Below, piece by piece: positions 5,145 through 26,481 of a stretch of 64,000 nt of DNA. Numbering within the stretch: position 1 is the first letter of the stretch; each line of letters begins with the position of its first letter. The notes under the pieces were generated by a model. It worked only from the letters and a program-made list of their open reading frames with translations. It was not told the origin of the DNA and did no database searches. The position numbers and the translations under genes are program-made. The stretch comes from Falsiroseomonas bella (GTDB lineage: Bacteria; Pseudomonadota; Alphaproteobacteria; Acetobacterales; Acetobacteraceae). The stretch spans positions 1,054,001-1,118,000 of the forward strand of contig NZ_QGNA01000001.1 of assembly GCF_003173615.1 (NCBI RefSeq), written 5' to 3'.

Positions 5145-5161
5145 TGTCGCCGGATTTTACA
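5145..5161 (+). promoter_or_regulatory. Candidate activator site (17-bp dyad) for PEP-CTERM gene at 5280
   Basis: TGTCGCCGGATTTTACA, one of four related 17-bp elements (TGTCG...TNACA) lying upstream of sigma-54 promoters of PEP-CTERM-type genes in this window. Here 50 bp separate it from the -24 element, against 62-63 bp at the other three. The position and dyad form suggest an enhancer-binding protein site. This is inference from recurrence. Confidence 0.5.
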
Positions 5162-5211
5162 GGTGCGTTATCCGCCGCGGAAAATGCGCGCGAATTCAAT
5201 GCGCTGCCGAA

Positions 5212-5227
5212 TGGCCCGTGTCTTGCT
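5212..5227 (+). promoter_or_regulatory. Sigma-54 (-24/-12) promoter of PEP-CTERM gene at 5280
   Basis: TGGCCCGTGTCTTGCT matches the sigma-54 consensus TGGCAC-N5-TTGCW with exactly 10 bases between the invariant GG and GC. Transcription would begin near 5238, about 40 bases before the ATG at 5280. Confidence 0.7.
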
Positions 5228-5279
5228 TGGCAGGTCTTGACGCGAAGTGATCCGCCCCGCCGGCGGATGGAGACCGAGG

Positions 5280-5585
5280 ATGCTGCGACTGCGGCGCGCG
5301 ACCATCGCCCTTGCACTGGGCACCCTCCTCGCCCTGGCCGCCCCGGCCATGGCCGGCAGGATCGCCCATGACGATGTGGACCTCATCCTGCTCGCCGAGG
5401 GTCCCGCCAATCCCGAGCAGATGCCCGGCGCCGACCGGATGGAGCTGGTCGCCAATGCCTCCGAGGCCGGCGAGATGAAGACGGCGAGCGCGGTGGCCGT
5501 GGCGGCGCCGGCGCCAGCCGCCCTCGCGGTGTTCGGGATCGGCCTGCTGGGCCTCGCGGCAGTGCGCCGGATCCGGCGCCGCTGA
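5280..5585 (+). CDS. Short PEP-CTERM-like secreted protein
   Basis: 101-residue protein with a Sec signal peptide (basic LRLRR, hydrophobic ALGTLLALAAPAMA, cleavage about residue 25), a central stretch of only about 45 residues, and a C-terminal sorting tail: APAPAALAVF, a hydrophobic helix GIGLLGLAAV, then RRIRRR. This is the PEP-CTERM layout recognised by exosortases, but the PEP triad is replaced by PAP. With so little mature sequence it may be a small surface or matrix peptide. The ATG at 5280 has GGAGA seven bases upstream; a GTG at 5247 in frame lacks a good ribosome site. Function unknown. Confidence 0.65.
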   Translation: MLRLRRATIALALGTLLALAAPAMAGRIAHDDVDLILLAEGPANPEQMPGADRMELVANASEAGEMKTASAVAVAAPAPAALAVFGIGLLGLAAVRRIRRR

Positions 5586-5609
5586 GGCGCGCGGCCGTCT
5601 CTCAGCCGC

Positions 5610-6170
5610 TCAGTGGTGCTTCCAGACGACTTCCTGCAGCGCGGGCTCGGTCGGGTCGCAGGGCAGCCACTGGCCGTTCGCGACGCTCTGCCCGGTCATG
5701 GACAGGATGAAGCCCCAGTGGCTGACCACCACGGTGTGGGCCCAGTCCTCCAGCGCCGCCATCTCGCCGCGGAAGCGCGCGGCGCGGGCCAGGACCTGTT
5801 CGGCCGGCTCTTCCTCCAGCGGCCACCAGACCTCCTCCAGGTGATCGAGCGTGAGGTCCGGCCATTCGCCACGCAGCGCGGTGGCGGGGCTGCCGATGTC
5901 GCAGGTGAAGGCGTAGCGCTCCCGCACGATCGGGTTGACCAGCACCGGCAGGCGGAGGCGGCGCGCCAGCGGCGCCGCGGTCTGCAGCGCGCGGGTGTAG
6001 GGGGAGGCGATGATGCGCCGGATCTCCTGCACGCCTGCCAGGGCCTCGGCCGCCGCCTCGGCCTGCTGGTGGCCGAGTTCCGTCAGCTTCGGGTCCTTGA
6101 TGCCGGGATCCCGGCGCGTGGCGCTGAAATGCAGGTTGAATTCGCTCTGGCCGTGACGCAGCAGGATCAT
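5610..6170 (-). CDS. Histidine phosphatase (phosphoglycerate-mutase fold)
   Basis: 186-residue member of the histidine phosphatase superfamily. The phosphohistidine motif LLRHGQSEFN lies at the N-terminus (His6), followed by the SPYTRALQTA block. The second catalytic histidine is in VVVSHWGF near residue 150. The substrate (sugar phosphate, nucleotide or protein) cannot be told from the sequence. The frame is open to 6410, but the ATG at 6170 puts RHG four residues from the start as in most family members. It is divergent from the Tim44-like gene and converges with the short PEP-CTERM gene. Confidence 0.8.
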   Translation of the reverse strand: MILLRHGQSEFNLHFSATRRDPGIKDPKLTELGHQQAEAAAEALAGVQEIRRIIASPYTRALQTAAPLARRLRLPVLVNPIVRERYAFTCDIGSPATALRGEWPDLTLDHLEEVWWPLEEEPAEQVLARAARFRGEMAALEDWAHTVVVSHWGFILSMTGQSVANGQWLPCDPTEPALQEVVWKHH

Positions 6171-6318
6171 CGCGCTGTCCCGAAGGTTCGGCGGCCGGTA
6201 TAGCGGTGCAGGCGGGCCCGCGCGACGGGGAGTCCGGGCCGGCCGGCAGGCGGGAAAAATCTTGCCGTTGCGGGGCGGGCCCGCGAGCCCTAAGTGATGG
6301 GCAAGTGAGGAGTCATCC

Positions 6319-7005
6319 ATGTCCGGCGGCTTCCCGGTCGATCTGATCCTGTTCGCGATGGTCGCGGCCTTCCTGGTGCTGCGCCTGCGCAGCGTGCTCG
6401 GCCGCCGCACCGGCTTCGAGCGTCCGCGGCGCGAGGGGCCGCATCCCTACGATCCCCAGGCGGCGCGCGGCGGCCCGGCCACCGATGCGCTGCCCGAGCT
6501 GCCCTCCCCGCAGATCGAGCCCGACGGCACCCGCCGCGTGGTGCCCGATCCGCGCAGCCCGGTCGGGCAGGCGCTGATGCGCATCCGCGCCGTGGACCCC
6601 TCCTTCGAGCCCGAGGGCTTCCTGCACGGCGCCGAGGGCGCCTTCCGCATGATCGTCGAGGCCTTCGCGCGCGGCGACCGGGACACGCTGCGCATGCTGC
6701 TGTCCGACGACACCTATGGCGGCTTCGAGGGCGAGATCTCCCGCCGCGAGGCTGCGGGCGAAAGCCAGCGCAGCGAGGTCCGCGCCATGCAGGAGACCAA
6801 GATCGACGCGGCCGACCTGCGCGGGACCGTGGCCGATGTGACGGTGCGCTTCGTCTCCGACCAGGTGAACCTCACCACGGCGAAGGACGGCAGCGTGGTG
6901 AACGGCGCCGAAGCGGTGACCGAACTCGTGGACATCTGGACCTTCCAGCGCGACCTCCGCAGCCAGGACCCGACCTGGAAGCTGGTGGCGACGCAGTCGG
7001 CCTGA
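6319..7005 (+). CDS. Tim44-like domain protein
   Basis: 228-residue inner-membrane protein of the bacterial Tim44/TimA family. It has an N-terminal membrane anchor (about 6-24, VDLILFAMVAAFLVLRLR), a charged and Pro-rich linker (residues 30-85), and a C-terminal Tim44 domain (FLHGAEGAFRMIVEAFARGD, WTFQRDL, WKLVATQ). Mitochondrial Tim44 recruits the import motor; the bacterial role is less certain, possibly membrane-protein or lipid related. In alphaproteobacteria the gene is commonly next to mltA, as here. GAGG lies about ten bases upstream of the ATG. Confidence 0.85.
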   Translation: MSGGFPVDLILFAMVAAFLVLRLRSVLGRRTGFERPRREGPHPYDPQAARGGPATDALPELPSPQIEPDGTRRVVPDPRSPVGQALMRIRAVDPSFEPEGFLHGAEGAFRMIVEAFARGDRDTLRMLLSDDTYGGFEGEISRREAAGESQRSEVRAMQETKIDAADLRGTVADVTVRFVSDQVNLTTAKDGSVVNGAEAVTELVDIWTFQRDLRSQDPTWKLVATQSA

Positions 7006-7036
7006 TCGCCGCAAGGGTAGTTCCCCCCTCACCCAA

Positions 7037-7068
7037 CCCTCTCCCCCCAAAGGGGGAGAGGGCTTTTG
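7037..7068 (+). terminator. Hairpin between the Tim44-like gene and mltA, possible terminator/attenuator
   Basis: Perfect 11-bp inverted repeat (CCCTCTCCCCC at 7037-7047 and GGGGGAGAGGG at 7052-7062) with a 4-base loop, followed by CTTTTGGG. It begins 31 bases after the Tim44 stop. The right arm is also the best ribosome-binding sequence for mltA, so the hairpin could both attenuate transcription and hide the ribosome site. Similar CCCTCTCCCCC palindromes are frequent extragenic repeats in proteobacteria. Confidence 0.5.
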
Positions 7069-7073
7069 GGCGT

Positions 7074-8183
7074 TTGGTGGTGGCGGGCTTGCTGGCGATG
7101 CTCGCGGGATGTGCACCGGCGGGGTTTCCGCGGGAGGCGAGCTTCGCGGAGCTGCCGGGCTGGGGCGCCGACCGGCACGCCGAGGCCATCCCGGCGCTGC
7201 GCCGGAGCTGCGCGGCAATCGCCCGGATGCCAGCGGAGCGGAGCCTGGGCGGCGACGGTGCGACGGCGCGCACGGCCGACAGCCTGAAGCCCGCCTGCAC
7301 GGCGCTCCAAAACCTCCCGCCGGGCGACGCCGCGGCGCGCGCCTTCCTGGAGGCGCATTTCCGGCCCGTGGCACTCGGTGAGGGCACGCTGACCGGCTAT
7401 TTCGAGCCGGAATTGCGCGGCAGCCCGACCCGCCGCCCCCGCTACGCCACGCCGCTGCTGGCCCGCCCGCCCGAACTGGTCGAGGCCGATCTCGGCACGC
7501 ACATCCCCGACCTGCGCGGCCGGCGCATCGCTGGCGTGGTCCGGGACGGGCGGTTGCTGCCCTTCCATGACCGCGCGGCCATCGAGGGCGGCGCGCTGGC
7601 CGGGCGCGGGCTGGAACTGGCCTGGGTGGACGACCCGGCCGATGCCTTCTTCCTGCAGATCCAGGGCTCGGGCCGGGTGCGCTTCGCCGATGGTCGCGTG
7701 CTGCGGCTCGGCTATGCCGGCTGGAACGGCTTTCCGTACGTGGCCGTCGGCCGGTTTCTCGTCGAGCAGGGCGCCCTGACGCGCGAGACGGTCTCGATGC
7801 AGTCCATCCGCGGCTGGATGCGGGAAGCCGGGCCGGAGGCCGCCGCGGCGCTGATGGCGCGCAACCCGAGCTACGTCTTCTTCCGCGCGCTGGACCTGCC
7901 GCCCGACCAGGGGCCCGTCGGGACGCTGGGCGTGCCGCTGACGCCGATGCGCTCGGTGGCGGTGGACCGCACCAAGGTGCCGCTTGGCCTACCGCTGTGG
8001 ATCGCTGGGCGCGACCCGGTCACCGACACGCCACTGCGCCGCCTCACGGTGGCGCAGGACACCGGCGGCGCGATCCGCGGCCTGGCGCGGGCGGATCTCT
8101 TCACCGGCTGGGGCGAGGAAGCCGCCGAGCGCGCTGGAAGGATGCGCGACCCGGCGGCGATGTGGGTGCTGCTGCCGCGGTGA
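7074..8183 (+). CDS. mltA: MltA, membrane-bound lytic murein transglycosylase A
   Basis: 369-residue MltA family enzyme that cleaves glycan strands of peptidoglycan with 1,6-anhydro ring formation. It starts with a lipoprotein signal (GLLAMLAGC, lipid Cys13). The MltA barrel carries TGYFEPELRGS, and the C-terminal 3D domain carries the aspartates expected for catalysis in RLTVAQDTGGAIRGLARADLF. ATG is absent; TTG 7074, GTG 7077 and GTG 7080 are possible starts, all eleven or more bases after GGGGGAGAGGG, which lies in a hairpin. The smr gene that often follows mltA is not present. Confidence 0.9.
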   Translation: MVVAGLLAMLAGCAPAGFPREASFAELPGWGADRHAEAIPALRRSCAAIARMPAERSLGGDGATARTADSLKPACTALQNLPPGDAAARAFLEAHFRPVALGEGTLTGYFEPELRGSPTRRPRYATPLLARPPELVEADLGTHIPDLRGRRIAGVVRDGRLLPFHDRAAIEGGALAGRGLELAWVDDPADAFFLQIQGSGRVRFADGRVLRLGYAGWNGFPYVAVGRFLVEQGALTRETVSMQSIRGWMREAGPEAAAALMARNPSYVFFRALDLPPDQGPVGTLGVPLTPMRSVAVDRTKVPLGLPLWIAGRDPVTDTPLRRLTVAQDTGGAIRGLARADLFTGWGEEAAERAGRMRDPAAMWVLLPR

Positions 8184-8272
8184 CGCCCGACCCCTGATCT
8201 CTCGGCCCGCTGCCGCTGGACCAAGGCGGAGCCACTGTCACCGTCAAGTTCCACCAGAGGCTTTACTCCGCC

Positions 8273-8289
8273 TGTCGGGAAAACTTACA
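8273..8289 (+). promoter_or_regulatory. Candidate activator site (17-bp dyad) for PEP-CTERM gene at 8458
   Basis: TGTCGGGAAAACTTACA, related to the elements at 5145, 25141 and 26465. It lies exactly 63 bp upstream of the -24/-12 promoter, the same gap as at the 24994 gene. Placement about 95 bp upstream of the predicted start point is typical for enhancer-binding protein sites at sigma-54 promoters. Confidence 0.55.
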
Positions 8290-8352
8290 GGATGTGAGGA
8301 TCAGCCAGTCAGGACCGCGGAAAATCATAGCCAAAGCAAATAGTTAACTTTA

Positions 8353-8368
8353 TGGCATGGTACTTGCA
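8353..8368 (+). promoter_or_regulatory. Sigma-54 (-24/-12) promoter of PEP-CTERM gene at 8458
   Basis: TGGCATGGTACTTGCA fits the sigma-54 consensus, with 10 bases between GG and GC. The predicted start point is near 8379, leaving a leader of about 80 bases. An 8-bp palindrome ACACGTGT (8370-8377) lies between the -12 box and the start point. Confidence 0.75.
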
Positions 8369-8457
8369 AACACGTGTAAATGCAGATTCGGCGCGCCGCG
8401 TTGCACGATGAACTACTCGGGTCGCGTGGGCGCGCCGCAACGAAAGCAGCGCGATCC

Positions 8458-9051
8458 ATGAAAATGCCTATCGGCCCCGGCCTCGTTCTGCTCGCAGCGA
8501 TGGGGGCGTCACCGTCCTCAGCCGCCATCGTGATCGACCAGAACGCACCGACAAACAACGCCTACATATCAACCTTAAGGCTGCCCGGGCGGGCGCAATC
8601 CTTCACGCCCGCGGCGAGCAACTCCGCCGGCGCGGGCATCTTCCTCAAGGAAGGGATCGGGTCGGGCAGCAGCGACATCACGATTTCACTGTGGACCGCT
8701 CTGCCCAACGCATCCGGCACGCAACTCGCAGCGGCAACCGTCTCGGTGTCTGGTCCAGGCGTGTGGGCCGATGTCTTCTGGTCCCCCGTGGCGGTGACGG
8801 TCGGCGCGACCTACTATCTCGACTTCGCCAGCACCAACGGGGATCTCGGCATTGCTGGCGATTCTTTCAACGGATATGCCGGCGGGAACGTGTTCGCCGC
8901 TGTCGGATACTTAGCCTTACCGGACTTGGACTACACCTTCCGCACCTACACGGACGATGGATACGTCGCCGCCGTCCCGGAACCGGCTTCGCTCGCCCTG
9001 TTCGGCCTGGGACTGATCGGTCTCGGTGCGCTGCGCCGCCGCGCCGACTGA
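8458..9051 (+). CDS. PEP-CTERM sorting domain protein
   Basis: 197-residue exported protein. A Sec signal peptide (about residues 1-24, GLVLLAAMGASPSSAA) is followed by a beta-rich domain of the kind seen in choice-of-anchor proteins (AQSFTPAA, DITISLWTAL, ATYYLDFAS). The C-terminus is a complete PEP-CTERM signal: AVPEPASLALF, transmembrane GLGLIGLGAL, RRR. Such proteins are cut and anchored or released by an exosortase, usually in exopolysaccharide-making bacteria. ATG 8458 directly precedes the signal peptide; the open frame reaches 8380. A sigma-54 promoter and an activator dyad lie upstream. Confidence 0.8.
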   Translation: MKMPIGPGLVLLAAMGASPSSAAIVIDQNAPTNNAYISTLRLPGRAQSFTPAASNSAGAGIFLKEGIGSGSSDITISLWTALPNASGTQLAAATVSVSGPGVWADVFWSPVAVTVGATYYLDFASTNGDLGIAGDSFNGYAGGNVFAAVGYLALPDLDYTFRTYTDDGYVAAVPEPASLALFGLGLIGLGALRRRAD

Positions 9052-9060
9052 TCCTGCCCC

Positions 9061-9083
9061 GCCCCGGGCACGGTGCCCGGGGC
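9061..9083. terminator. GC-rich hairpin between convergent genes
   Basis: Inverted repeat with 11-bp arms, GCCCCGGGCAC and GTGCCCGGGGC, separated by one base. It lies between the stops of the PEP-CTERM gene (9051) and hemE (9093), so it could stop transcription from both sides. There is no T-tract on either strand. Confidence 0.45.
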
Positions 9084-9092
9084 GGCCGCCTG

Positions 9093-10196
9093 TCACCCCC
9101 CGCTGCGCACCAGCCGAACCAGCGCCGCGACATGCTCGGGCGGCGTGATCTTCTCGATGCCGTGGCCGAGGTTGAAGACGAAGGGCCGGCCGCGCATCGC
9201 GGCGAGGATCTGGCGCGCCTCCGCCTCCAGCGCCGCACCGCCGGCGACCAGGGCCAGAGGGTCCAGGTTGCCCTGCAGTGCGACCGTGGGCGGCACCAGC
9301 TGGGCGGCCAGGCGCGGGTCCATGGCGGTGTCCATCGCCACCGTGTCCACGCCCGTGCGCTGGACGTATTCGCCGATCAGCGGGCCGGCGAGGCGCGGGA
9401 AGCCGATCACCGGGATGCCGGGATGCAGCCGCTTCACGTTGCGGACGATGGTGACCGTCGGCTCGATCACCCAGCGGCGGAACTGGCTCGGCGGCAGCAT
9501 GCCGGCCCAGCTGTCGAACAGCATCACCGCCTCGGCGCCGGCTTCGATCTGCGCCGCGAGGTAGTCCGTGGTGGCGTCAACCAGGGTGCGGATAAGCCGG
9601 CCGAACAGGGCGGGATCGGCGAAGGCCATGCCGCGCGCCGTGTGGAAGTCGCGGCTGCCATGCCCCTCCACCATGTAGGCCGCGACGGTCCAGGGGCTGC
9701 CGGCGAAGCCGATCAGCGTGGTCTTCGGGTGCTGCGCGGCCAGCGCCGCGCGGGTCAGGCGCACCGTCTCGAAGATCGGCGCGGCGCGCTCCCGCACCTT
9801 GTCGAGCTCCAATGCCCCGATGCCGGCGGCGTCGCGCAGCGGCTCGAGCACCGGGCCTTCCCCTTCCGCGAAGCGGAGCGGCTGGCCAAGCGCCCAGGGG
9901 ACCATGAGGATGTCGGAGAACAGGATCGCGCCATCCATGCCGTAGCGGCGGATCGGCTGGATGGTGACCTCGGAGGCCAGGTCGGGCGTGGTGCAGAGCG
10001 CGATGAAGCCGCCCGCCTTCTCCCGCACGGCGCGGTACTCGGGCAGGTAGCGGCCCGCCTGGCGCATCAGCCACATCGGCGGCGGCCAGACGGCCTCGCC
10101 CGACAGCGCGCGCAGCAGCGGCTTGCGCGCTTCCGTCGTGGCGCCCGTCGCCACCCCTGTTTCACTGCCTGCCGACAAGCCTGCCTCCCGGAACAA
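9093..10196 (-). CDS. hemE: HemE, uroporphyrinogen decarboxylase
   Basis: Cytoplasmic enzyme of haem synthesis that removes four acetate carboxyl groups from uroporphyrinogen III to give coproporphyrinogen III. The family signature WLMRQAGRYLPEYR, holding the substrate-binding arginines, is near residues 42-55. Further conserved blocks are DGAILFSDILMVPWALG with its essential Asp, FAGSPWTVAAYMVEG, AEAVMLFDSWAGML, and a C-terminal FNLGHGI with the conserved His. The 367-residue frame begins with TTG at 10196; a GTG 14 codons later would give 353 residues, closer to the usual 340-355, so the start is unsure. Other hem genes are not nearby. Confidence 0.95.
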   Translation of the reverse strand: MFREAGLSAGSETGVATGATTEARKPLLRALSGEAVWPPPMWLMRQAGRYLPEYRAVREKAGGFIALCTTPDLASEVTIQPIRRYGMDGAILFSDILMVPWALGQPLRFAEGEGPVLEPLRDAAGIGALELDKVRERAAPIFETVRLTRAALAAQHPKTTLIGFAGSPWTVAAYMVEGHGSRDFHTARGMAFADPALFGRLIRTLVDATTDYLAAQIEAGAEAVMLFDSWAGMLPPSQFRRWVIEPTVTIVRNVKRLHPGIPVIGFPRLAGPLIGEYVQRTGVDTVAMDTAMDPRLAAQLVPPTVALQGNLDPLALVAGGAALEAEARQILAAMRGRPFVFNLGHGIEKITPPEHVAALVRLVRSGG

Positions 10197-10503
10197 CGGC
10201 GCCCATCATCCTAAAAGACTCTGAATCCTTGAAGTGGGTGGAGTGCTGTTGGGCCTGTGGTCATCGGGGATGGGTGCTTTGCCCGGATGATCCACAAGCC
10301 TGTCCACGCGAGTGACGGGCCGCAACCCCCTGTCCCGCAACGGCAATCCGGGTTGCCCACGGGAGCGGGAGCAAGGGCGGGAAAGTCATCCCGGCGTCGG
10401 GCCGAGGGGTGGGTTTCCCACCCTTTGCGCGAGAGCGCCCTTGACCGGGCCGGGTTTTCCCCGCCATCCCCGCGATCCGCGGAGCGCCCCCGGGAGCCTC
10501 TCC
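10197..10503. other. Intergenic region between divergent hemE and PPDK-regulator genes
   Basis: About 300 bases without a supported gene, expected to hold both divergent promoters. The hemE-proximal 40 bases are comparatively AT-rich (AAAAGACTCTGAATCCTTG). I see no convincing -35/-10 pair, operator or RNA structure beyond short GC-rich inverted repeats such as GGGTGGGTTTCCCACCC. Confidence 0.4.
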
Positions 10504-11391
10504 ATGCCGCATCGCACGATCAACCTGCACCTGGTGTCCGACAGCACCGGGGAGACCCTGAACTCGATGGCGCGCGCCACGCTGTCGCGCTTCGACGAGC
10601 CGCATGTCATCCACCACCGCTGGTCACTGATCCGTTCACGCCTGCAACTCGACCGCGTGCTGGACGGCATCGAGGCGGAGCCGGGGCCGGTGCTGTTCAC
10701 GGTCGCCGACCGCAGCCTGCGCCACGCGCTGGAGGAGCATTGCACCCGGCTCGGCGTCGCCTGCCTCTCCGTGCTCGATCCGATCATGGAGCTGCTGCAG
10801 ACCGAGCTCGGCGAGCGCGCGCGGGAGAAGCGGGCGGCGCAGCATGTGATGGACGCCGACTATTTCCGGCGGATCGACGCGATGCACTACGTGCTGGCGC
10901 ATGACGACGGGCAGGGCGTGGCCGGCATCCACGAGGCGGATGTGTGCCTGGTCGGCGTCTCCCGCAGCAGCAAGACGCCGACCTGCTTCTACCTGGCGAA
11001 CCGCGGCATCAAGGCGGCGAATGTGCCGATCGTGCCCGGCGCGACCATGCCGCCCGAGCTGAACGAGGCACCCTGCCCCGTTGTGGGGCTGCATATCGAG
11101 GCCGGCGCGCTGATCGAGATCCGCCGCCACCGTCTGCGCCTGATCGGCGCCGGCGGCGTGCGCAGCGACGCCAACGACTATGTGGACCATGAGGCGGTGA
11201 AGGCGGAGATCCAGGCCGCGCGCCGGCTGTGCACCCAGCATGGCTGGCCGGTGATCGACGTGACGCGCCGCTCGATCGAGGAGACGGCGGCGACCGTGCT
11301 GCAGCTGATGGAGGCCTGGCACGAGCGGCGGCGCCAGCCCGCGGTGCCGCACGCGCCGGAAGACCCGGCGGCGGGCGTGCTCGGCGGATGA
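10504..11391 (+). CDS. Pyruvate phosphate dikinase regulatory protein (DUF299 kinase/phosphorylase)
   Basis: 295-residue bifunctional regulator that uses ADP to phosphorylate, and Pi to reactivate, the active-site Thr region of pyruvate phosphate dikinase (or PEP synthase). Family marks are the N-terminal [13 protein letters not shown], the nucleotide-binding loop [10 protein letters not shown] (151-160), PPELNEAP and a C-terminal [17 protein letters not shown] 10504 follows GGGAG at a suitable distance; a longer open frame back to 10312 has no support. The gene order divergent hemE, this gene, maf is typical for Rhodospirillales. The dikinase itself is not in the window. Confidence 0.9.
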
Positions 11392-11407
11392 GGGACTTTT
11401 TTCGCCC

Positions 11408-12354: not shown

Positions 12355-12384
12355 TTGACGCAACGCGTAAGGAAGCGTTATGTT
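12355..12384 (+). promoter_or_regulatory. Sigma-70-type promoter for PEP-CTERM-like gene at 12431
   Basis: TTGACG (12355-12360), an 18-bp spacer, then TATGTT (12379-12384). This is the only one of the five PEP-CTERM-type genes without a sigma-54 promoter or the 17-bp dyad. Confidence 0.45.
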
Positions 12385-12430
12385 TTGTCTGTCGAAAAAA
12401 TATCGATATATACTATTAAGGAGACAGATT

Positions 12431-13054
12431 ATGCCGGCGAGCCTCGCGCCCCGGTTGCTGGGCGCTGCCGCCCTTGCTGCCACCCTGGTTGCCGGCATGG
12501 CCGGCCGCGCCGATGCGGCGATCGTCGCCTGCTCGGCGAGCGTTGCCGAGCGCGTGACCTCCGGCGGCGCTGCCCTGCCCTGCCAGGTCAGCACGACGTA
12601 CGACCAGGATTTCCAGAACAGGAATCCGATCACCGTGAACCGCGAAGGCGGCTTCTTCGGCTTCGAGGACTGGGAGCTGATCGACAAGGTCGGGAGCGGC
12701 CAGTCGGGCAGCTACGACGTCACCCAGCTGGACGACTTCGATACGTTCGGGAACTGGATGATGATCTTCAAGTCGGGCGACGACACCTTCCTGACCGGCT
12801 ACCTGCTCGAGGCGACGCAGCTCACGGGCGACTGGTCGAGCCCCTTCCGGCAGGTGAACCGCAACGGCAGGGTCAGCTACAAGGATGTCTCGCACATCTC
12901 CTTCTACGGACGGGGCGAGCCGCTGATCGTCGCGCCGCCCTCCCCGCCGCCGGGTCCCGAGCCGGTCGTGGACGTGCCCGCGCCGGCGAGCCTCGGCCTG
13001 TTCGCGGCCGGGCTTCTTGGCCTTGGTCTCGTGCGGCGCCGCAGCAGGGCGTGA
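12431..13054 (+). CDS. PEP-CTERM-like secreted protein (VPAP variant)
   Basis: 207-residue exported protein with a Sec signal peptide (about 1-33, LGAAALAATLVAGMAGRADA), an Asp- and aromatic-rich beta domain (FFGFEDWELIDKVG, WMMIFKSGDDTFLTGYLLE, VSHISFYG) and a C-terminal sorting tail VPAPASLGLF, hydrophobic AAGLLGLGLV and RRRSR. The glutamate of the PEP triad is Ala. VPAP forms occur among alphaproteobacterial exosortase substrates, but processing here is inferred. A strong ribosome site AAGGAG lies eight bases before the ATG. Function unknown. Confidence 0.75.
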   Translation: MPASLAPRLLGAAALAATLVAGMAGRADAAIVACSASVAERVTSGGAALPCQVSTTYDQDFQNRNPITVNREGGFFGFEDWELIDKVGSGQSGSYDVTQLDDFDTFGNWMMIFKSGDDTFLTGYLLEATQLTGDWSSPFRQVNRNGRVSYKDVSHISFYGRGEPLIVAPPSPPPGPEPVVDVPAPASLGLFAAGLLGLGLVRRRSRA

Positions 13055-20093: not shown

Positions 20094-20122
20094 ATTCTAT
20101 CTTAAATTCCATGGATCGTCAC
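20094..20122 (-). promoter_or_regulatory. Possible sigma-70 promoter of the radical SAM operon
   Basis: On the minus strand GTGACG, a 17-bp spacer and TAGAAT, inside the only AT-rich part of the divergent gap to the YdcF gene. Start point would be near 20087, which leaves 46 bases before the ATG at 20041. Confidence 0.35.
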
Positions 20123-20149
20123 GCGCCCTCAACGGGTTCAGAGTGCCGC

Positions 20150-20701: not shown

Positions 20702-20714
20702 GAATGCAGGGGTC

Positions 20715-20757
20715 CGGGGACGCTCAGCGTCCCCGGCGGAGCGCGAGGCGGAGCCTC
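20715..20757. terminator. Tandem hairpins between convergent genes
   Basis: Two adjacent inverted repeats: GGGGACGCT/AGCGTCCCC (about 20717-20735) and GCGAGGC/GCCTCGC with a 3-base loop (about 20741-20757). They sit between the stops of the YdcF gene (20701) and the EcsC gene (20762), a likely bidirectional terminator. Confidence 0.5.
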
Positions 20758-20761
20758 GCCC

Positions 20762-21583
20762 CTATGCGTTGAAGCGCGCGTCCCTGGTTTCCTGGATGGC
20801 CTCGTAAGCGAGCTTCACCGGCTCCGCACCATAGGTCCGTTCCAGACGGCGCACCGTGAAGTGTCCCTGCCCCACGCCCCGGAAATGCTCGAGGAAGGCG
20901 AGGTTCACCGCCGCACCCGCCGCGGCGCCGATGATCGGCGCCGCCTGCGCGGACAGCTTCAGCGCGACGGGGCCGCCGAAGCGCGCCGCGATGGTGCCGA
21001 GGAAGCCCGGCAGCATCAGCCCCGCGACGCCCTTGCCGGCGACGGTCTTCAGCGCCTCGGCCAGCGCGATGCGGACGGCGAAGTAGCCGCTCTCGGCCGC
21101 GTCGTCGCGCGGGTCGCGGCCGCCGAGGGCGAAGACCTTGAGGCATTCGGCCGCGATCTCCGGCCGTTTCAGGTCCTCGCCGTTCTCGGCCGCGATGGCG
21201 GCGATCTGGCGGAGGAGAAGCGTGGTGGAGACGGGCAGCTCGACCAGCGTTCCCGGCAGGCCGAGCGCGCCGCCCGCGGCGCCGGAGGCGGCGGCCATGC
21301 CGCGGTGGAACCAGGAGGATTCGACCGGCAGCGGCGTGCGCGCGGGGTCGCTGCGCAGCGCGGCCTCCATCGCGGCGGAGAGGGCGCGGCGCACGGCGCC
21401 GTCCACCATGCCCTGTACCGGGCCGGGCAGCCGGTTCTTCAGCGCCTCCACCGGCTTGCCGACGAGCTGGGAGAGGCGCGCGGCGTAGGAGAGATCCTCG
21501 AGCTGCGCGACGGCGCGGCGGAGGTCGGCGAGCGCGGAAGCGGGCAGGGTGTTGCCCTCGGCGAGGGCGATGGCGGTGGACAT
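20762..21583 (-). CDS. EcsC-family protein
   Basis: 273-residue EcsC domain protein. Conserved features are WFHRGMAAASGAAGGALGLPGTLVELPVSTTLLLRQIAAIAAENGED, read in two blocks around residues 91-137, followed by ECLKVFALGG and a long C-terminal helical region with glycine-rich segments (APIIGAAAGAAVNLAFLEHF). EcsC was named after a Bacillus ABC-transporter operon member; its function is unclear. The helical glycine-rich parts suggest membrane association. Faces the AbrB-Doc operon on the same strand, 31 bp after the toxin stop. Confidence 0.75.
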   Translation of the reverse strand: MSTAIALAEGNTLPASALADLRRAVAQLEDLSYAARLSQLVGKPVEALKNRLPGPVQGMVDGAVRRALSAAMEAALRSDPARTPLPVESSWFHRGMAAASGAAGGALGLPGTLVELPVSTTLLLRQIAAIAAENGEDLKRPEIAAECLKVFALGGRDPRDDAAESGYFAVRIALAEALKTVAGKGVAGLMLPGFLGTIAARFGGPVALKLSAQAAPIIGAAAGAAVNLAFLEHFRGVGQGHFTVRRLERTYGAEPVKLAYEAIQETRDARFNA

Positions 21584-21614
21584 GCGGCCTATATCGAAAC
21601 GGCGGGCCGGGAGT

Positions 21615-22007
21615 TCACCCCCTGGCCGCAGCGTGGTGGCGGAGCCAGTCGGCGAATTCCTCCTCGGTCATGGCGCCGGCGGCGAGGTCGAGCATGGCGA
21701 CGGTCGCCATGGCCGGCGGCGCGGTCAGCACCAGACCGTTGAGCATCAGGAAGACACCGGCCGCGGCGAAGGCCGCGCGCTTGTTGCCGTCCACGAAGGG
21801 GTGGTTCTGCGCGATGCCCTTGGCGTAGGCGGCGGCAAGGCGGCAGAGGTCCGTCTCCGCGTCGTAGGCGAAGCGGTTGAGCGGGCGGGCCAGCGCGCTG
21901 TCCAGCAAACCGTCGTCCCGCAGGCCGTCGGCGCCGCCGAACTGGCGCAGGCTCTCGCGGTGGAGAAGGAGCAGGGCCTCCTTCGCCAGCCAGCGCGGCG
22001 TGCTCAT
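21615..22007 (-). CDS. doc: Doc-type Fic domain toxin (death-on-curing)
   Basis: 130-residue Doc toxin. The Fic active-site motif is HPFVDGNKR (His69-Arg77) in IAQNHPFVDGNKRAAFAA. Doc proteins phosphorylate elongation factor EF-Tu and halt translation. The N-terminal LLLLHRESLRQFGG and the LLDSALARP block are typical of the chromosomal Doc group. The ATG lies four bases after the antitoxin stop, so the two are co-translated. Intact motif and full length argue for an active toxin. The frame is open to 22031, but only 22007 follows the antitoxin gene. Confidence 0.85.
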   Translation of the reverse strand: MSTPRWLAKEALLLLHRESLRQFGGADGLRDDGLLDSALARPLNRFAYDAETDLCRLAAAYAKGIAQNHPFVDGNKRAAFAAAGVFLMLNGLVLTAPPAMATVAMLDLAAGAMTEEEFADWLRHHAAARG

Positions 22008-22011
22008 GGGA

Positions 22012-22236
22012 TCACTTCGCCAGGGCGGCAAAAGTCTCCCGGTAGGTCTTCATGAGCTCGCGGCCGAGGCGCAGCTGTTCCTCCACGTCGGGCGAGACCG
22101 GCGTGAGGAGGAAACCGTCGGGCGTTTCGACCACCTGGACGGTGTCGCCCTCGGACAGGTTGTACTTGGCCAGCAATTCCTTCGGGAACACCACGCCCAC
22201 CGAGTTGCCGACCGATCGCAGCCTCACGCTCGCCAT
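22012..22236 (-). CDS. AbrB/MazE-type antitoxin
   Basis: 74-residue swapped-hairpin DNA-binding protein. The N-terminal half reads VRLRSVGNSVGVVFPKELLAKYNLSEGD in two consecutive blocks, the SpoVT/AbrB pattern, and the C-terminal 30 residues form the charged tail expected to wrap the toxin. It is paired with Doc in place of the more familiar Phd. Two 14-bp inverted repeats in its promoter are a likely autoregulatory operator. Confidence 0.85.
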   Translation of the reverse strand: MASVRLRSVGNSVGVVFPKELLAKYNLSEGDTVQVVETPDGFLLTPVSPDVEEQLRLGRELMKTYRETFAALAK

Positions 22237-22281
22237 GCATGTTTTCGGCCTAGCGGGCCGACTCCTGCCGTGTCAACAGCA

Positions 22282-22311
22282 GTTATAACGTGGGATCTTT
22301 CCCACATGCAA
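22282..22311 (-). promoter_or_regulatory. Promoter of the AbrB-Doc operon
   Basis: Minus-strand TTGCAT (22306-22311), an 18-bp spacer, and TATAAC (22282-22287). One operator repeat fills the spacer and the other lies just upstream of the -35 box. The start codon at 22236 is about 40 bases downstream of the predicted start point. Confidence 0.6.
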
Positions 22312-22325
22312 TGGGATAATTCCCA
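22291..22325. promoter_or_regulatory. Double operator of the AbrB-Doc operon
   Basis: Two inverted repeats of the form TGGGATNWTTCCCA at 22291-22304 and 22312-22325. Their centres are 21 bp apart, about two DNA turns, so two antitoxin dimers could bind on the same face. They bracket the -35 box, which fits repression by the antitoxin or toxin-antitoxin complex. Confidence 0.7.
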
Positions 22326-22346
22326 CCTTTGCTGAAGGACGGTCCG

Positions 22347-23675
22347 TCACAAAATGAACCGGCTCAGATCCGCGCTGGCGGCTAGCGGTGCCACGCGGTT
22401 GCGGACCATCGCGCCGTCCACCGTGATCGTCTCCCCGCCGCGGTCGCTGGCAGTGAACGAAATCTCGTCCAGCAGGCGTTCCATCACGGTTGCCAGGCGG
22501 CGGGCGCCGATGTTCTCGACGGTGGCGTTGATCTCGGCGGCGAGCTCGGCCAGCGCATCCACGGCATCGGGGGTGATGTCGAGCGTCACGCCCTCCGTCC
22601 CCATCAGCGCGACATACTGGCTGGTGAGGGAATGCTCCGGCTCGGTCAGGATGCGCCGGAAATCCTCCTGCGTCAGGGCCTTCAGCTCCACGCGGATCGG
22701 CAGGCGGCCCTGCAGTTCCGGCAGAAGGTCGCTGGGCTTGGCCATGTGGAAGGCGCCGGAGGCGATGAAGAGGATGTGGTCCGTCTTCACCGGCCCGTGC
22801 TTGGTGGTGACGGTCGTGCCCTCGATCAGGGGCAGCAGGTCGCGCTGCACGCCCTCCCGGCTGACGTCGCCGCCGCGGAAGCCGCCGCCTTCGCTGGTGC
22901 GGGCGCAGACCTTGTCGATCTCGTCGATGAAGACGATGCCGTTGTTCTCGGCGTTCGCCACCGCCTCGCGCGTCAGCTGCTCGTTGTCGAGCAGCTTGTC
23001 GGCCTCGTCCTTGGTCAGGGCGATGCGCGCCTCGGCGACGGACATCTTGCGCGGCTTGGTGCGGCCGCCGAACATCTTGCCGAGCATCTCCTGCATGTTC
23101 TGCATCTGGATGCCCTGCGCGCCGGGCAGGTCGATCATGCCGATCGGCATGCCGCCGCCGGCATCGGCCACCTGAACCTCGACCTCGCGGCCTTCAAGCT
23201 GGCCTTCGCGCAGCATGCGGCGGAACTTCATCTTCGTGTCGCCGGAGGCGCCCTCGCCCACCAGCGCGCCGACCAGGCGTTCCTCCGCGGCGAGTTCGGC
23301 CTTGGCCTGCACGTTCCTGCGCGCGATGTCGCGGGTCTGGGTGATGGAGGCCTCCACCAGGTCGCGGACGATGCTTTCCACGTCGCGGCCGACATAGCCG
23401 ACCTCGGTGAACTTCGTGGCCTCCACCTTCAGGAAGGGCGCGTTGGCGAGCTTCGCCAGGCGGCGGGCGATCTCGGTCTTGCCGCAGCCGGTCGGGCCGA
23501 TCATCAGGATGTTCTTCGGCACCACCTCCTCGCGAAGGCCGGGCGCCAGCTGCTGGCGGCGCCAGCGGTTGCGCAGCGCGATGGCAACGGCGCGCTTGGC
23601 CTCGTTCTGTCCGACGATGTGGCGGTCGAGCTCGGAGACGATCTCGCGCGGGCTCAGGTTGATCGACTCGCTCAC
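22347..23675 (-). CDS. hslU: HslU, ATPase subunit of the HslUV protease
   Basis: 442-residue AAA+ unfoldase that feeds proteins into HslV. It starts with [35 protein letters not shown] (in consecutive blocks), carries Walker A GPTGCGKT (60-67), the pore motif [14 protein letters not shown], Walker [10 protein letters not shown] and the C-terminal tail DLSRFIL that inserts into HslV. The GTG start overlaps the hslV stop (GTGA). The stop is 22 bp from the double operator of the AbrB-Doc operon, which lies beyond it on the same strand. Confidence 0.97.
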
Positions 23676-24232
23676 GCTTCCAGGCTTTCGAGAATGATGT
23701 TGCCGTTGGTGTAGACGCAGATCTCGCCGGCGATCTTCATGGCGCGGCGGCAGATCTCCTCGGCGGCCAAGCCCTCCACCGGCAGCAGCGCGCGGGCCGC
23801 GGCCAGCGCGTAGTTGCCGCCGGAGCCGATGCCGATCACCGCATCCTCCGGCTCCAGCACGTCGCCCTGGCCGGTGAGCAGCAGGGAGCGCTTGGCGTCG
23901 GCGACGGCGAGCAGCGCCTCCAGCCGGCGCAGGTAGCGGTCGGTGCGCCAGTCCTTGGCGAGTTCGACGCAGGCGCGTTCGAGCTGGTCGGGGAAGCGCT
24001 CAAGCTTCGCCTCCAGGCGTTCGAGCAGGGTGAAGGCGTCGGCGGTGGCCCCGGCGAAGCCGGCGAGGACGCGGCCATTGGCGATGCGCCGCACCTTGCG
24101 CGCATTGCCCTTCACCACGGTCTGGCCGAGCGAGACCTGGCCGTCGCCGGCCATGGCGACGCGCCCGTCCTTGCGGACGCAGAGGATGGTTGTGCCGTGC
24201 CAGCCGGCGGGATCGTGGGAGGAGGAACTCAT
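23672..24232 (-). CDS. hslV: HslV, peptidase subunit of the HslUV protease
   Basis: 186-residue N-terminal threonine peptidase. The propeptide ends at Gly13 (GWHG) and the mature chain begins with Thr14 in [10 protein letters not shown], the catalytic nucleophile. The [26 protein letters not shown] region and [21 protein letters not shown] are typical. ATG 24232 is chosen; ATG 24241 would add three residues. hslV-hslU is one operon here. In many alphaproteobacteria hisB diverges directly from hslV; here two PEP-CTERM genes lie between them. Confidence 0.95.
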
Positions 24233-24279
24233 GCCGCGCATGTGGCGCGGCGACGGGCCGGCGGCAAGCCGGTGCGCCG

Positions 24280-24297
24280 CCCCGCCCGATGGCGGGG
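24280..24297 (-). terminator. Short GC hairpin after the PEP-CTERM gene at 24311
   Basis: Seven-base arms CCCCGCC and GGCGGGG with loop CGAT, 14 bases past the stop on the minus strand. No T-tract; weak evidence for termination. Confidence 0.3.
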
Positions 24298-24310
24298 CAG
24301 CCTTCGCCGT

Positions 24311-24994
24311 TCAGCCGCGGCGGGACACCCGGCGGACCAGGCCGAGGCCGATCAGGCCCATGCCGAACAGGGAGAGCGTCAGCGGCTCCGGGACCGCGGT
24401 GGAACGGTCGACGTCGTAGCGGACCGTCAGCAGGGCACCGGCCTCGTTGAAGCGCCCGGGCGTGTAGGTGCCATTCGTAACGGTGCTCGTCGGGCTGATC
24501 AGTCCGTTGTCCCGATCGATGCTGAGGTTGAAGATCACGTTCCCCGGCCCCGTGAAGAAGGCGAGGATCGCCGGAGCGACATAGGTGTCCGAGACGGTGC
24601 CGGTGCTGCTCACGGGGTCGGAGGTGCGGTTGGTGCCCCTCGGCACGGTCACGGACACCGGCGTGTCCACGCTGAGGACGGGCAGCGAGGTGGTGTCGAA
24701 GCTCAGCGCGAAATTGGCGCCCAGCGTCGAGGTATAGGTGACCGAGCCGGTCGGGCCGTTGTTGTTGCGCGCGATGCGCAGGGTGCCACCGGAAGTACCT
24801 TCAAGTTCCACCTCGACGGCGAGGAGGGTGCCCCAGCTCGGCGAGAACTTCTGGATCGACAGGGTCGTATCCGTGCCGGGCGGACCCGGCAGCGCCGTCA
24901 GCGGGTATTCCGCCGTCCTCGTGATCGTCGCGGCCTGTGCCACCGTCGCGGAGACGACGAACGCACAGACGGCGAACCCTGACGCGAGACGCAT
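24311..24994 (-). CDS. PEP-CTERM protein with choice-of-anchor E-like domain
   Basis: 227-residue exported protein. A Sec signal peptide (1-21, SGFAVCAFVVSATVAQA) precedes a beta-sandwich that resembles the choice-of-anchor E type: TDTTLSIQKFSPSWGTLLAVEVELEG, read in two blocks near 40-65, and a later GNVIFNLSIDRDNG. The C-terminus is a complete PEP-CTERM signal, AVPEPLTLSLF, GMGLIGLGLV, RRVSRRG. ATG 24994 has GGAGACAGG in front. It has a sigma-54 promoter at 25062-25077 and an activator dyad at 25141-25157. The function of the mature domain is unknown, probably a matrix or surface protein. Confidence 0.8.
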   Translation of the reverse strand: MRLASGFAVCAFVVSATVAQAATITRTAEYPLTALPGPPGTDTTLSIQKFSPSWGTLLAVEVELEGTSGGTLRIARNNNGPTGSVTYTSTLGANFALSFDTTSLPVLSVDTPVSVTVPRGTNRTSDPVSSTGTVSDTYVAPAILAFFTGPGNVIFNLSIDRDNGLISPTSTVTNGTYTPGRFNEAGALLTVRYDVDRSTAVPEPLTLSLFGMGLIGLGLVRRVSRRG

Positions 24995-25061
24995 ACCTGT
25001 CTCCAATCCAACCCCGGCCGGAGGCGCGGGGCAAACGTGAACGCTCTCGATGCAACTCTTA

Positions 25062-25077
25062 AGCAAGCAACGTGCCG
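25062..25077 (-). promoter_or_regulatory. Sigma-54 (-24/-12) promoter of PEP-CTERM gene at 24994
   Basis: Minus strand CGGCACGTTGCTTGCT: GG and GC separated by exactly 10 bases, with near-consensus CACG and TTGC elements. The start point would be near 25051, giving a leader of about 57 bases. Confidence 0.75.
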
Positions 25078-25140
25078 TTGGCAAATTCTATTTCACAACA
25101 AGCTCTTGGCGCCATCGATGCAGGAGGACCTGCTGCGAGT

Positions 25141-25157
25141 TGTAAAGAATTCCGACA
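25141..25157 (-). promoter_or_regulatory. Candidate activator site (17-bp dyad) for PEP-CTERM gene at 24994
   Basis: Minus strand TGTCGGAATTCTTTACA. The first 13 bases are identical to the element at 26465-26481. The gap to the -24/-12 promoter is 63 bp, the same as at the 8458 gene. Confidence 0.6.
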
Positions 25158-25441
25158 GATACGCTGCCGAGCGCCTGTCGCCTGCTGTGAGTCTAGACTC
25201 AGGCCTCTGAGGCTTGTGTGGGAAAATGAGATAAGTCCGATTAGTGGGACGCAATCCTGCGCGCCATCGGTGGAACCAGCTTGCTCACAAAGCCTCGAAG
25301 CACCGGCATCCGGGCAGAGCGAGGCCGGTGCGGTCCTGCAATCGGAAGTTGATCTTGGCGGCGGGTGAGGGCCCGATGAGGCGCCTTGGGCGATCGGGAT
25401 GCGCGCGGCCTGCCAGGAAAGGGAAGCCGCACCTGTAAGCT

Positions 25442-25465
25442 GTCCCGACAGGTGCCTGCCGGGAC
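25442..25465 (-). terminator. Inverted repeat downstream of the PEP-CTERM gene at 25502
   Basis: Arms GTCCCGACAGG and CCTGCCGGGAC (10 of 11 paired) around a 2-base centre, 37 bases past the stop of the minus-strand PEP-CTERM gene. No T-tract is visible on the minus strand, so a terminator role is only possible. Confidence 0.35.
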
Positions 25466-25501
25466 GGGACTACCGATGGGTCGGTAAGGAAGGCCCCGTT
25501 T

Positions 25502-26242
25502 TCAGGAATGCGGCCGGATGCCGCATCCCGGCGTGCCGGCCGAGCGTCGCCGCACGGCCGAGAGCGCCGCCAGCCCGAGGCCAAACAGCGCCAGCGCCAT
25601 CGGCTCCGGCACGGTGGTGACCGGGATCAGGTCCGAGGTCACCTCGAACTCGGCGATGTCGAAGCCGTCATAGGTGTCGAGCACCACGCCGCCGGGCGGC
25701 ACCTGCGGCACATCCACCAGGCGGATGGAGTTGTAGGTGCCGCTGACGACCGTGAAGTTGAAGGTCGGGTTCGTACCGGCCGGGGCGCCGCCGTTCACAT
25801 AGGCCGTCGAGATGATGGCGCCATTGACGCCCGACCAACCGGCAGTGTTCGGGAGATGGCCGTTGCGCATCGTGCCGACCTGCACCCACCCGGTCCCGTT
25901 GTTGCCGAGGAAGACGTTGGCGCTCTCGGGGAAGCCGGCGGTGCCGCCGGTCAGCTCGATCGTCTGGCCGGCGGAAATGAAGCGGCCTGTCGGCGGGGAG
26001 ATGAGGAGGTCGATGCTGCCGCCGCGGCCGAGCGAGAGGATCGACGTCAGGTTGTTGTCGAACATGTTGCTGATGATCGAGCGGCTCGGCGCCACGGTGA
26101 GCGACGTGCCGCGCGGACCCTGGACCAAGGTGATCGCGGCGAATTCGGCGATGGTGTCGTGCACGATCGGCGAGGCCTGCGCCGGCAGGGTGACCGCAAC
26201 AGCGCCAGCGACCAGGGCCGCGGCAAGGATCGGGCGAGCCAT
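25502..26242 (-). CDS. PEP-CTERM sorting domain protein
   Basis: 246-residue exported protein. Signal peptide about 1-24 (ILAAALVAGAVAVTLPAQA). The mature part is a beta-rich domain (SIDLLISPPTGRFISAGQTIELTGG in two blocks, GTGWVQVGTM, TFNFTVVSGTYNSIRLVDV). The sorting tail is TVPEPMALALF, GLGLAALSAV, RRRS, followed by 11 unusual extra residues with a Cys (GTPGCGIRPHS) after the basic cluster. ATG 26242 is preceded by GGAGA; an ATG four codons upstream is less well placed. It has its own sigma-54 promoter and dyad, so it is transcribed separately from the 24994 gene. Confidence 0.8.
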   Translation of the reverse strand: MARPILAAALVAGAVAVTLPAQASPIVHDTIAEFAAITLVQGPRGTSLTVAPSRSIISNMFDNNLTSILSLGRGGSIDLLISPPTGRFISAGQTIELTGGTAGFPESANVFLGNNGTGWVQVGTMRNGHLPNTAGWSGVNGAIISTAYVNGGAPAGTNPTFNFTVVSGTYNSIRLVDVPQVPPGGVVLDTYDGFDIAEFEVTSDLIPVTTVPEPMALALFGLGLAALSAVRRRSAGTPGCGIRPHS

Positions 26243-26386
26243 CGAAGTCTCCATCCAGCGAGGCGGGCCTCCCGGCACACCGCGTCACGCCATTCATGTC
26301 ATTGCGCGGCGCGAAAGTAAACGACCCGTGATCGATTCAATCGGAGTCGCCTACAACCAGGCCGAGCAGTCGTCGCGCAAAGGGCA

Positions 26387-26402
26387 GGCAAACCTCGTGC
26401 CG
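26387..26402 (-). promoter_or_regulatory. Sigma-54 (-24/-12) promoter of PEP-CTERM gene at 26242
   Basis: Minus strand CGGCACGAGGTTTGCC: GG-N10-GC spacing with CACG and TTTGC elements, very close to the promoter at 25062-25077. It predicts a long leader of about 135 bases. Confidence 0.7.
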
Positions 26403-26464
26403 CAAATCTAATGCTCTGATCCGGAACGATTGAGTTCGCCGGCACCGACGGCTGCGTTCCGGTG

Positions 26465-26481
26465 TGTCAAGAATTCCGACA
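26465..26481 (-). promoter_or_regulatory. Candidate activator site (17-bp dyad) for PEP-CTERM gene at 26242
   Basis: Minus strand TGTCGGAATTCTTGACA, the most symmetric of the four elements (TGTC...GACA ends). The gap to the -24/-12 promoter is 62 bp. Confidence 0.6.

What the first reader, a model, noticed from the sequence alone, without database searches (positions are those of the whole stretch)
5145..26481. A shared 17-bp dyad 62-63 bp above the sigma-54 promoters, probably the activator site
TGTCGGAATTCTTTACA (25157 to 25141, minus), TGTCGGAATTCTTGACA (26481 to 26465, minus), TGTCGGGAAAACTTACA (8273-8289) and TGTCGCCGGATTTTACA (5145-5161) line up as TGTCG-N8-T-N-ACA. The gaps to the -24 box are 63, 62, 63 and 50 bp. 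A fixed distance of about 95 bp from the start point is what an enhancer-binding protein needs. I know of no description of this site. It links scattered exosortase substrates to one undetermined regulator.
Basis: partly seen in the sequence, partly recalled or inferred. Interest (0 to 1): 0.85.

Follow-up and report, generated by a model that had tools for sequence, protein, structure and literature searches.

The report
PrsR activator box upstream of PEP-CTERM genes
The repeated DNA word is an already published switch site through which bacteria turn on exosortase-sorted surface proteins; what looks new is that its distance to the promoter comes mostly in whole turns of the DNA helix, with a site resembling that of the DNA-bending protein IHF in between.

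Summary
The site is not undescribed: it is 'motif 1' of Haft et al. 2006 (PMC1569441), a 17-nt motif ending TTTACA, 62.8 +/- 10.6 nt before a sigma-54 promoter, upstream of 99 of 167 proteobacterial PEP-CTERM genes and predicted to bind the response regulator PrsR. This genome has PrsR, PrsK, exosortase A, RpoN and IHF-alpha, each over its curated cut-off. In 395 genomes of the order, 60 of 74 with a strict box-promoter pair have PrsR over the cut-off, against 26 of 321 without a pair. Three of four window promoters keep box and spacing class in one congener.

Two features go beyond the 2006 text. (1) Spacing is stepped by about one DNA turn: 42-44, 50-54, 61-65, 74-77, 84-88, with 0 of 81 strict sites between; in laxer sets 6 of 148, 6 of 58 and 5 of 24 fall between. 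(2) Blind motif discovery in 105 spacers recovers an IHF-like motif, mostly in helical register with box and promoter. Best model: PrsR at the box loops over an IHF bend to sigma-54 polymerase. PrsR and IHF binding are inferred, not shown.

The parts
5145..5161 (+). PrsR box (motif 1), TGTCGCCGGATTTTACA
   Evidence: best box in the congener's upstream region is AGTCGGAATTCTTGACA at spacing 52
5194..5206 (+). IHF-like site, 7 of 9 consensus letters (WATCAANNNNTTR), 6 bp before the -24 GG
   Evidence: a single 7-of-9 match is weak, inferred
5212..5227 (+). sigma-54 promoter TGGCCCGTGTCTTGCT
5247..5585 (+). 112-aa ORF with a PEP-CTERM-like tail (PAP variant), below the PF07589 cut-off
8273..8289 (+). 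PrsR box TGTCGGGAAAACTTACA
   Evidence: identical box at the same spacing (64) in congener G1051
8334..8346 (+). IHF-like site, 8 of 9, 7 bp before the -24 GG
   Evidence: inferred
8353..8368 (+). sigma-54 promoter TGGCATGGTACTTGCA
8380..9051 (+). PEP-CTERM protein, 223-aa ORF
   Evidence: PF07589 7.8e-8; TIGR02595 25.1 bits, cut-off 16
25141..25157 (-). PrsR box TGTCGGAATTCTTTACA
25096..25108 (-). IHF-like site (YAANNNNTTGATW orientation), 7 of 9, 19 bp before the -24 GG
   Evidence: a single 7-of-9 match is weak, inferred
25062..25077 (-). sigma-54 promoter CGGCACGTTGCTTGCT
24311..25084 (-). PEP-CTERM protein with choice-of-anchor E domain (longest ORF; the true start may lie further in)
25434..25450 (-). 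second PrsR box 293 bp upstream of the 25157 box
   Evidence: Haft 2006 notes that motif 1 is sometimes repeated
26465..26481 (-). PrsR box TGTCGGAATTCTTGACA
   Evidence: best box in the congener's upstream region is TGTCGGGATTCTTGACT at spacing 63
26409..26421 (-). IHF-like site, 7 of 9, 7 bp before the -24 GG
   Evidence: a single 7-of-9 match is weak, inferred
26387..26402 (-). sigma-54 promoter CGGCACGAGGTTTGCC
25502..26278 (-). PEP-CTERM protein, 258-aa ORF

Best explanation
The dyad is the PEP-CTERM box (Haft motif 1), the upstream activating site of the NtrC-type response regulator PrsR, presumably activated by the membrane kinase PrsK. PrsR bound at the box assembles into an AAA+ oligomer; the DNA between box and promoter is bent, most likely by IHF at a site in register with both elements, so that PrsR reaches sigma-54 RNA polymerase at the -24/-12 promoter and opens it by ATP hydrolysis. 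The box has to lie on one face of the helix relative to the promoter, so the distance changes mostly in steps of about one turn. Result: scattered exosortase substrates are switched on together. Shown here by sequence: box, promoter, stepped spacing, IHF-like element in register, co-occurrence with PrsR, presence of PrsK, RpoN and IHF-alpha. Inferred: binding by PrsR and IHF, looping, activation, the kinase's role.
For: Box: 6 in the window vs 0.04 expected; 25 vs 1 genome-wide. Match to Haft motif 1/motif 2 in length, 3' end, spacing and gene context. 17 of 39 genes over the PF07589 cut-off have box plus sigma-54 promoter (upstream DNA incomplete for 3 of the 39). PrsR 608 bits vs cut-off 502.6, PrsK 470 vs 300 in the adjacent ORF, exosortase A 289 vs 208, RpoN 410 vs 277, IHF-alpha 124.5 vs 120.25. 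Order-wide: 60 both, 14 pair only, 26 PrsR only, 295 neither, of 395. Stepped spacing: 81 strict sites, R 0.79, jitter-null maximum 0.36 with 5-bp and 0.43 with 8-bp jitter; one per taxon label, 62, R 0.78, null maximum 0.46; 148 order sites, R 0.82 vs 0.37. Blind EM motif AAgtcATTGAttT in 105 spacers, log-likelihood 179.7 vs 33-40 in 8 shuffled sets run with fewer restarts. Congener: 3 of 4 promoters. Outside: rpoN dependence and mapped start of a PEP-CTERM gene with the predicted enhancer upstream (PMC9850573 passages); D. vulgaris DVUA0057 enriched its five predicted PEP-CTERM targets in DAP-chip (PMC3333781 passages).
Against: No binding or expression data for this organism. 22 of 39 genes over the PF07589 cut-off lack a box-promoter pair, 17 of them any scoring box, among the 22 the window gene 12380-13054. 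14 of 74 pair-positive genomes of the order had no PrsR over the cut-off (one, G1129, has a partial hit). Spacings are not strictly confined: 6 of 148 (listing), 6 of 58 (strict boxes) and 5 of 24 lie between the classes; for the 24 the periodicity barely exceeds the null (2 of 1000 jittered sets reach it). Best periods scatter from 10.35 to 11.4 bp. In A. tertiaricarbonis plasmid prsK or prsK-prsR did not restore floc mutant RN12M47, and the D. vulgaris paper states that no binding motif was validated for that regulator. IHF-like sites of the four window promoters are only 7 or 8 of 9 matches; in shuffled pooled spacers half reach 7 of 9 in some place and orientation, and 14 of 105 real spacers have none. 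Other HU-family proteins or intrinsic bends could use such a site.
Confidence: 0.9

Rival explanations
1. The box is bound by another NtrC-type activator of this genome, not PrsR.
For: Eight further hits of 232 bits or more to TIGR02915 in the genome, below the cut-off; 14 of 74 pair-positive order genomes have no PrsR over the cut-off.
Against: Co-occurrence of pair and PrsR (60 of 74 vs 26 of 321), one locus over the PrsR cut-off, and the published DAP-chip of a PrsR-type regulator.
Confidence: 0.06
2. Stepped spacing reflects activator-promoter geometry with intrinsically curved AT-rich DNA; the TTGA-type element is a curvature signal or a site for another protein, not IHF.
For: The 81 spacers are 59% A+T with A/T-rich positions; many sites match the IHF consensus only 7 of 9.
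Against: EM without any consensus recovered AA-N4-TTGA-W-W, which agrees with the IHF consensus YAANNNNTTGATW except that the T after TTGA is T or A, at preferred distances; the opposite orientation has its own peak at GG-6 to -8 (a further peak at GG-22 overlaps the main site); 91 of 105 spacers have a 7-of-9 match against 51.5 in shuffles, largest 62.
Confidence: 0.2
3. The spacing classes reflect shared descent of a few promoters rather than selection for helical phase.
For: Several loci are close relatives (Sphingopyxis, Massilia, L129/L184).
Against: Holds with one site per taxon label (62) and in the off-mode sites of the order (49 sites, phases within 2 bp). The 20 promoters of this single genome also fit (R 0.86), but mostly because 16 of 20 lie at 61-64. 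Inference: indels of other sizes would have filled the gaps.
Confidence: 0.05
4. Chance repeats or coding-sequence artefacts.
For: The 47630 match looks like one.
Against: Counts against shuffles and reversed pattern.
Confidence: 0.01

Closest known systems
PEP-CTERM box / PrsK-PrsR regulatory system (Haft et al. 2006, PMC1569441; section 7 read in full, other passages searched)
   Same: 17-nt motif ending TTTACA, about 63 nt spacer, sigma-54 -24/-12, upstream of PEP-CTERM genes, PrsR and PrsK genes together, motif sometimes repeated.
   Different: The paper gives mean, s.d. and range of the spacer (62.8, 10.6, 32-92); it has no 'IHF' and uses 'helical' only in a reference title.
IHF-assisted sigma-54 promoters such as orp of D. 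vulgaris (PMC3897727, search listing only) and nifH/pspA (recalled)
   Same: Activator site, IHF and a sigma-54 promoter (order of elements recalled, not read).
   Different: Here one grammar recurs over many genomes, with both arms varying by about whole turns.
Vibrio qrr enhancers of LuxO (PMC4740811, passages read)
   Same: Natural sigma-54 loops whose sequences show sensitivity to the helical repeat.
   Different: Different activator and genes; evidence there is from indels in qrr loops and from synthetic enhancers.
A. tertiaricarbonis pepA promoter (PMC9850573, passages read)
   Same: RpoN-dependent PEP-CTERM gene, TGGCAC/CTGCTT promoter mapped by primer extension, predicted enhancer upstream.
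   Different: Other organism; the passages say that more experiments are needed on the regulatory mechanism.

Membership tests
PEP-CTERM box (Haft motif 1 + motif 2) | 17-nt motif with 3' end TTTACA | tested here: met
   TTTACA in two of the four window sites, CTTACA and TTGACA in the others
PEP-CTERM box (Haft motif 1 + motif 2) | spacer mean 62.8 nt, range 32-92, to a GG/GC sigma-54 motif | tested here: met
   51, 64, 64, 63 in the window; 20 pairs of the genome at 51-72
PEP-CTERM box (Haft motif 1 + motif 2) | lies upstream of PEP-CTERM genes | tested here: met
   17 of 39 PF07589-positive genes plus 3 of 11 weaker hits; elsewhere 70 of 110 promoters by a crude tail test (30 not, 10 too short) vs 3 of 92 on the divergent side
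PEP-CTERM box (Haft motif 1 + motif 2) | genome encodes PrsR and PrsK in tandem | tested here: met
   TIGR02915 and TIGR02916 over cut-off in adjacent ORFs
PEP-CTERM box (Haft motif 1 + motif 2) | genome encodes PrsT | tested here: inconclusive
   a 253-aa ORF near the end of my stretch scored 133 bits vs 312
PEP-CTERM box (Haft motif 1 + motif 2) | PrsR binds motif 1 | not testable with these tools
   needs footprinting; nearest published support is DAP-chip in D. vulgaris, without a validated motif
IHF-assisted sigma-54 promoter | IHF consensus between activator site and promoter | tested here: met
   enriched as a class; weak (7-8 of 9) in each of the four window promoters
IHF-assisted sigma-54 promoter | organism has IHF | tested here: met
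   himA over cut-off; the beta subunit was not searched
IHF-assisted sigma-54 promoter | IHF binds and is needed | not testable with these tools
   no experiment

The most novel reading that the evidence does not exclude
PrsR-box promoters across Proteobacteria share one geometry: box, IHF site and sigma-54 promoter lie on a fixed helical face, and both arms (box to IHF-like motif mostly 20-24, 30-35, 41-45 or 52-53 bp; motif to -24 GG mostly 7-9, 17-20 or 27-31 bp) have grown or shrunk mainly by whole DNA turns. PEP-CTERM promoters would then be a large natural data set of how enhancer loops evolve, and IHF would be a so far unreported partner.
Probability: 0.75. Interest if true: 0.5.

Novelty: already known. 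Interest (0 to 1): 0.4.

Why it matters
It closes the finding: site and regulator were described in 2006, so no new regulator need be sought. The added geometry gives a cheap rule for annotating PrsR regulons (prefer in-register spacings) and a clean test of helical-phase constraint and IHF use at natural sigma-54 enhancers.

Tried and rejected
Considered and rejected: chance repeats; an unknown regulator; a single fixed 63-bp distance (replaced by steps). The 47630 site was set aside as coding chance. A spacing of 94 bp that I entered for the box at G000:C1:1775562 was a mistake (in one search the 94 belongs to a weak box nearby), so that row is dropped: 14 of 20 spacers of this genome in one orientation and 11 of 20 in the other have 7 or more of 9 IHF letters, about 2.5 expected each. 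The loose sigma-54 scan of the window had 133 matches with 143 expected and is useless alone. In the congener my first pattern scan missed the 5145 and 26481 promoters, whose boxes differ at the first or last letter; they came from the best-scoring site in the upstream regions.

Literature: searches for PEP-CTERM with integration host factor (3 papers; the passages in each are references or unrelated), with helical/phasing and with sigma54/IHF listed no paper that reports IHF or phasing for these promoters; two searches were seen as listings only. Subscription papers, e.g. Zoogloea work recalled from memory, were not seen.

Limits: listings were cut by the tools. I tallied 148 listed rows, the own genome's 2 left out; of the rows shown I tallied 58 with a strict box, own genome left out (the first typing missed 3); 24 rows, own 2 left out; genomes G145, G244, G325 are in both 25 and 28. 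The patterns allowed about 31-91 bp between the motifs; one search rescanned 15-220 and 2 of its 83 pairs (167, 177 bp) were left out of the test. In one search only the 4 best candidates per genome were scored. The co-occurrence test treats related genomes as independent. EM nulls had 12 starts of 40 rounds against 40 of 60 for the data. The IHF consensus is recalled; one search lists 15 papers that hold the string, none opened.
Full report
Observation. The formula needs N7, not N8: as written it has no match; corrected, the window has six against 0.04 expected. Genome-wide the TGTCGG form has 25 matches against one for the reversed pattern, the looser form 43 against 5. Of the two extra window matches, 25450-25434(-) is a second box above the 25157 promoter; 47630 lies in an ORF and is probably chance.

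What it is. Haft et al. 2006 (PMC1569441; section 7 read in full) described a 17-nt motif ending in TTTACA, followed after 62.8 +/- 10.6 nt by a sigma-54 motif, upstream of 99 of 167 proteobacterial PEP-CTERM genes, and matched its phylogenetic profile to PrsR, PrsK and PrsT. The window's sites agree in motif, spacing, promoter and gene context. The genome has one PrsR over the curated cut-off, PrsK in the adjacent ORF, exosortase A about 18 kb away on the same contig, RpoN and IHF-alpha; PrsT is inconclusive. Of 39 genes over the PF07589 cut-off, 17 have box and promoter (an 18th only with a weak box at 94 bp); of 11 weaker hits, 3 do, among them the 5247 gene of this window (upstream DNA was incomplete for 3 of the 39 and 1 of the 11). 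So 22 of 39, the window gene 12380-13054 among them, have no such pair.

Conservation. Its promoter at the 8273 gene has the identical box and spacing 64 (the region is 96.5% identical overall, so this is weak evidence by itself). Upstream of the 5145 and 26481 orthologues the best-scoring boxes differ from the window's at 8 and 2 of 17 letters, but keep the dyad and spacings of 52 and 63. The 25157 gene has no full-length match in the stretch fetched.

Regulator. In 395 genomes of the order a strict box-promoter pair is present in 74 and PrsR over the cut-off in 86; 60 have both, 14 the pair only, 26 PrsR only, 295 neither. The genomes are related, so the Fisher P of 1.6e-36 overstates the case, but the direction is plain. 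Published support: DVUA0057 of D. vulgaris enriched its five predicted PEP-CTERM targets, with several other hits, in DAP-chip, though no motif was validated (PMC3333781, passages); pepA of A. tertiaricarbonis needs RpoN1 and has a mapped -24/-12 promoter, while plasmid prsK or prsK-prsR did not restore mutant RN12M47 there (PMC9850573, passages).

New detail 1: spacing comes mostly in turns. In this genome 20 pairs have spacings 51, 51, 53, 61, 62 (3), 63 (8), 64 (4) and 72. In 80 loci from many proteobacterial species and a few other records, 81 pairs below 93 bp fall at 42-44 (10), 50-54 (12), 61-65 (34), 74-77 (16) and 84-88 (9), none in the 25 positions between; the best period is 10.75 bp with R 0.79, against at most 0.36 when each spacing is jittered by up to 5 bp and 0.43 by up to 8 bp. 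A promoter motif in the 205 bp on the other side of the box was found in 0 of 96 cases. With one site per taxon label (62) R is 0.78, null maximum 0.46. In 148 listed sites from the order: 41-43 (6), 51-54 (33), 58 and 59 (1 each), 60-66 (97), 73-75 (9), 85 (1); best period 11.0, R 0.82 against 0.37. Two laxer sets are less clean: 58 strict-box sites of the class have R 0.69 against 0.47, with 6 between the classes; 24 sites of the phylum have R 0.65, reached by 2 of 1000 jittered sets, with 5 between. These sets contain pairs not checked for lying in coding DNA.

New detail 2: an IHF-like element. Expectation-maximisation without any prior motif on 105 de-duplicated spacers gave AAgtcATTGAttT, log-likelihood 179.7 against 33-40 for eight shuffled sets. 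It agrees with the IHF consensus (recalled: WATCAANNNNTTR, on the other strand YAANNNNTTGATW) except that the T after TTGA is T or A. Its distance to the -24 GG is 17-20 bp in 64 of 105, 7-9 in 12 and 27-31 in 10, elsewhere in 19; its distance from the box is 20-24, 30-35, 41-45 or 52-53 in 91 of 105. So both arms mostly keep helical register. The opposite orientation has its own peak at 6-8 bp from GG. In this genome 14 of 20 spacers have a 7-of-9 match in one orientation and 11 of 20 in the other, about 2.5 expected each (one wrong row dropped). The four window promoters have one each, at GG-6, -7, -19 and -7, but of 7 or 8 letters only, which alone would prove nothing.

Mechanism. PrsR at the box, IHF bending the middle and sigma-54 polymerase at the promoter would form a short loop; at this length torsional stiffness makes helical phase important, which would explain the disfavoured distances. 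This step is inference from geometry and from what is known of NtrC-type activators (recalled; helical-repeat sensitivity of natural LuxO/qrr loops in PMC4740811, passages).

Verdict. The site and its proposed regulator are already known; the finding is a good independent rediscovery with two wrong claims about novelty. Helical steps and the IHF-like element are not in the 2006 paper as far as its section 7 and a word search show, nor shown by three searches of the held library, and merit a short experimental test.

Noticed in passing
window 25434-25450 (-): Second box 293 bp above the 25157 box in the same intergenic region; second boxes also occur above several other PEP-CTERM genes of this genome.
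   Followed up: partly
window 12380-13054 (+): PEP-CTERM-type gene (PAP tail) without a box-promoter pair; 22 of 39 PF07589-positive genes of the genome are like this and may be controlled otherwise.
   Followed up: partly
G000:C9:576930-580558: Cluster of PEP-CTERM genes with several strong boxes on both strands but no sigma-54 motif found at the usual distance.
   Followed up: no
G000:C1:1764868 (+): Box-promoter pair (spacing 61) with no PEP-CTERM gene assigned downstream.
   Followed up: no
L121, L135, L141: Sphingopyxis promoters of the shortest spacing class (44) precede an ORF without a PEP-CTERM tail, with similar C-terminal sequence in all three: perhaps a non-substrate member of the regulon.
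   Followed up: no
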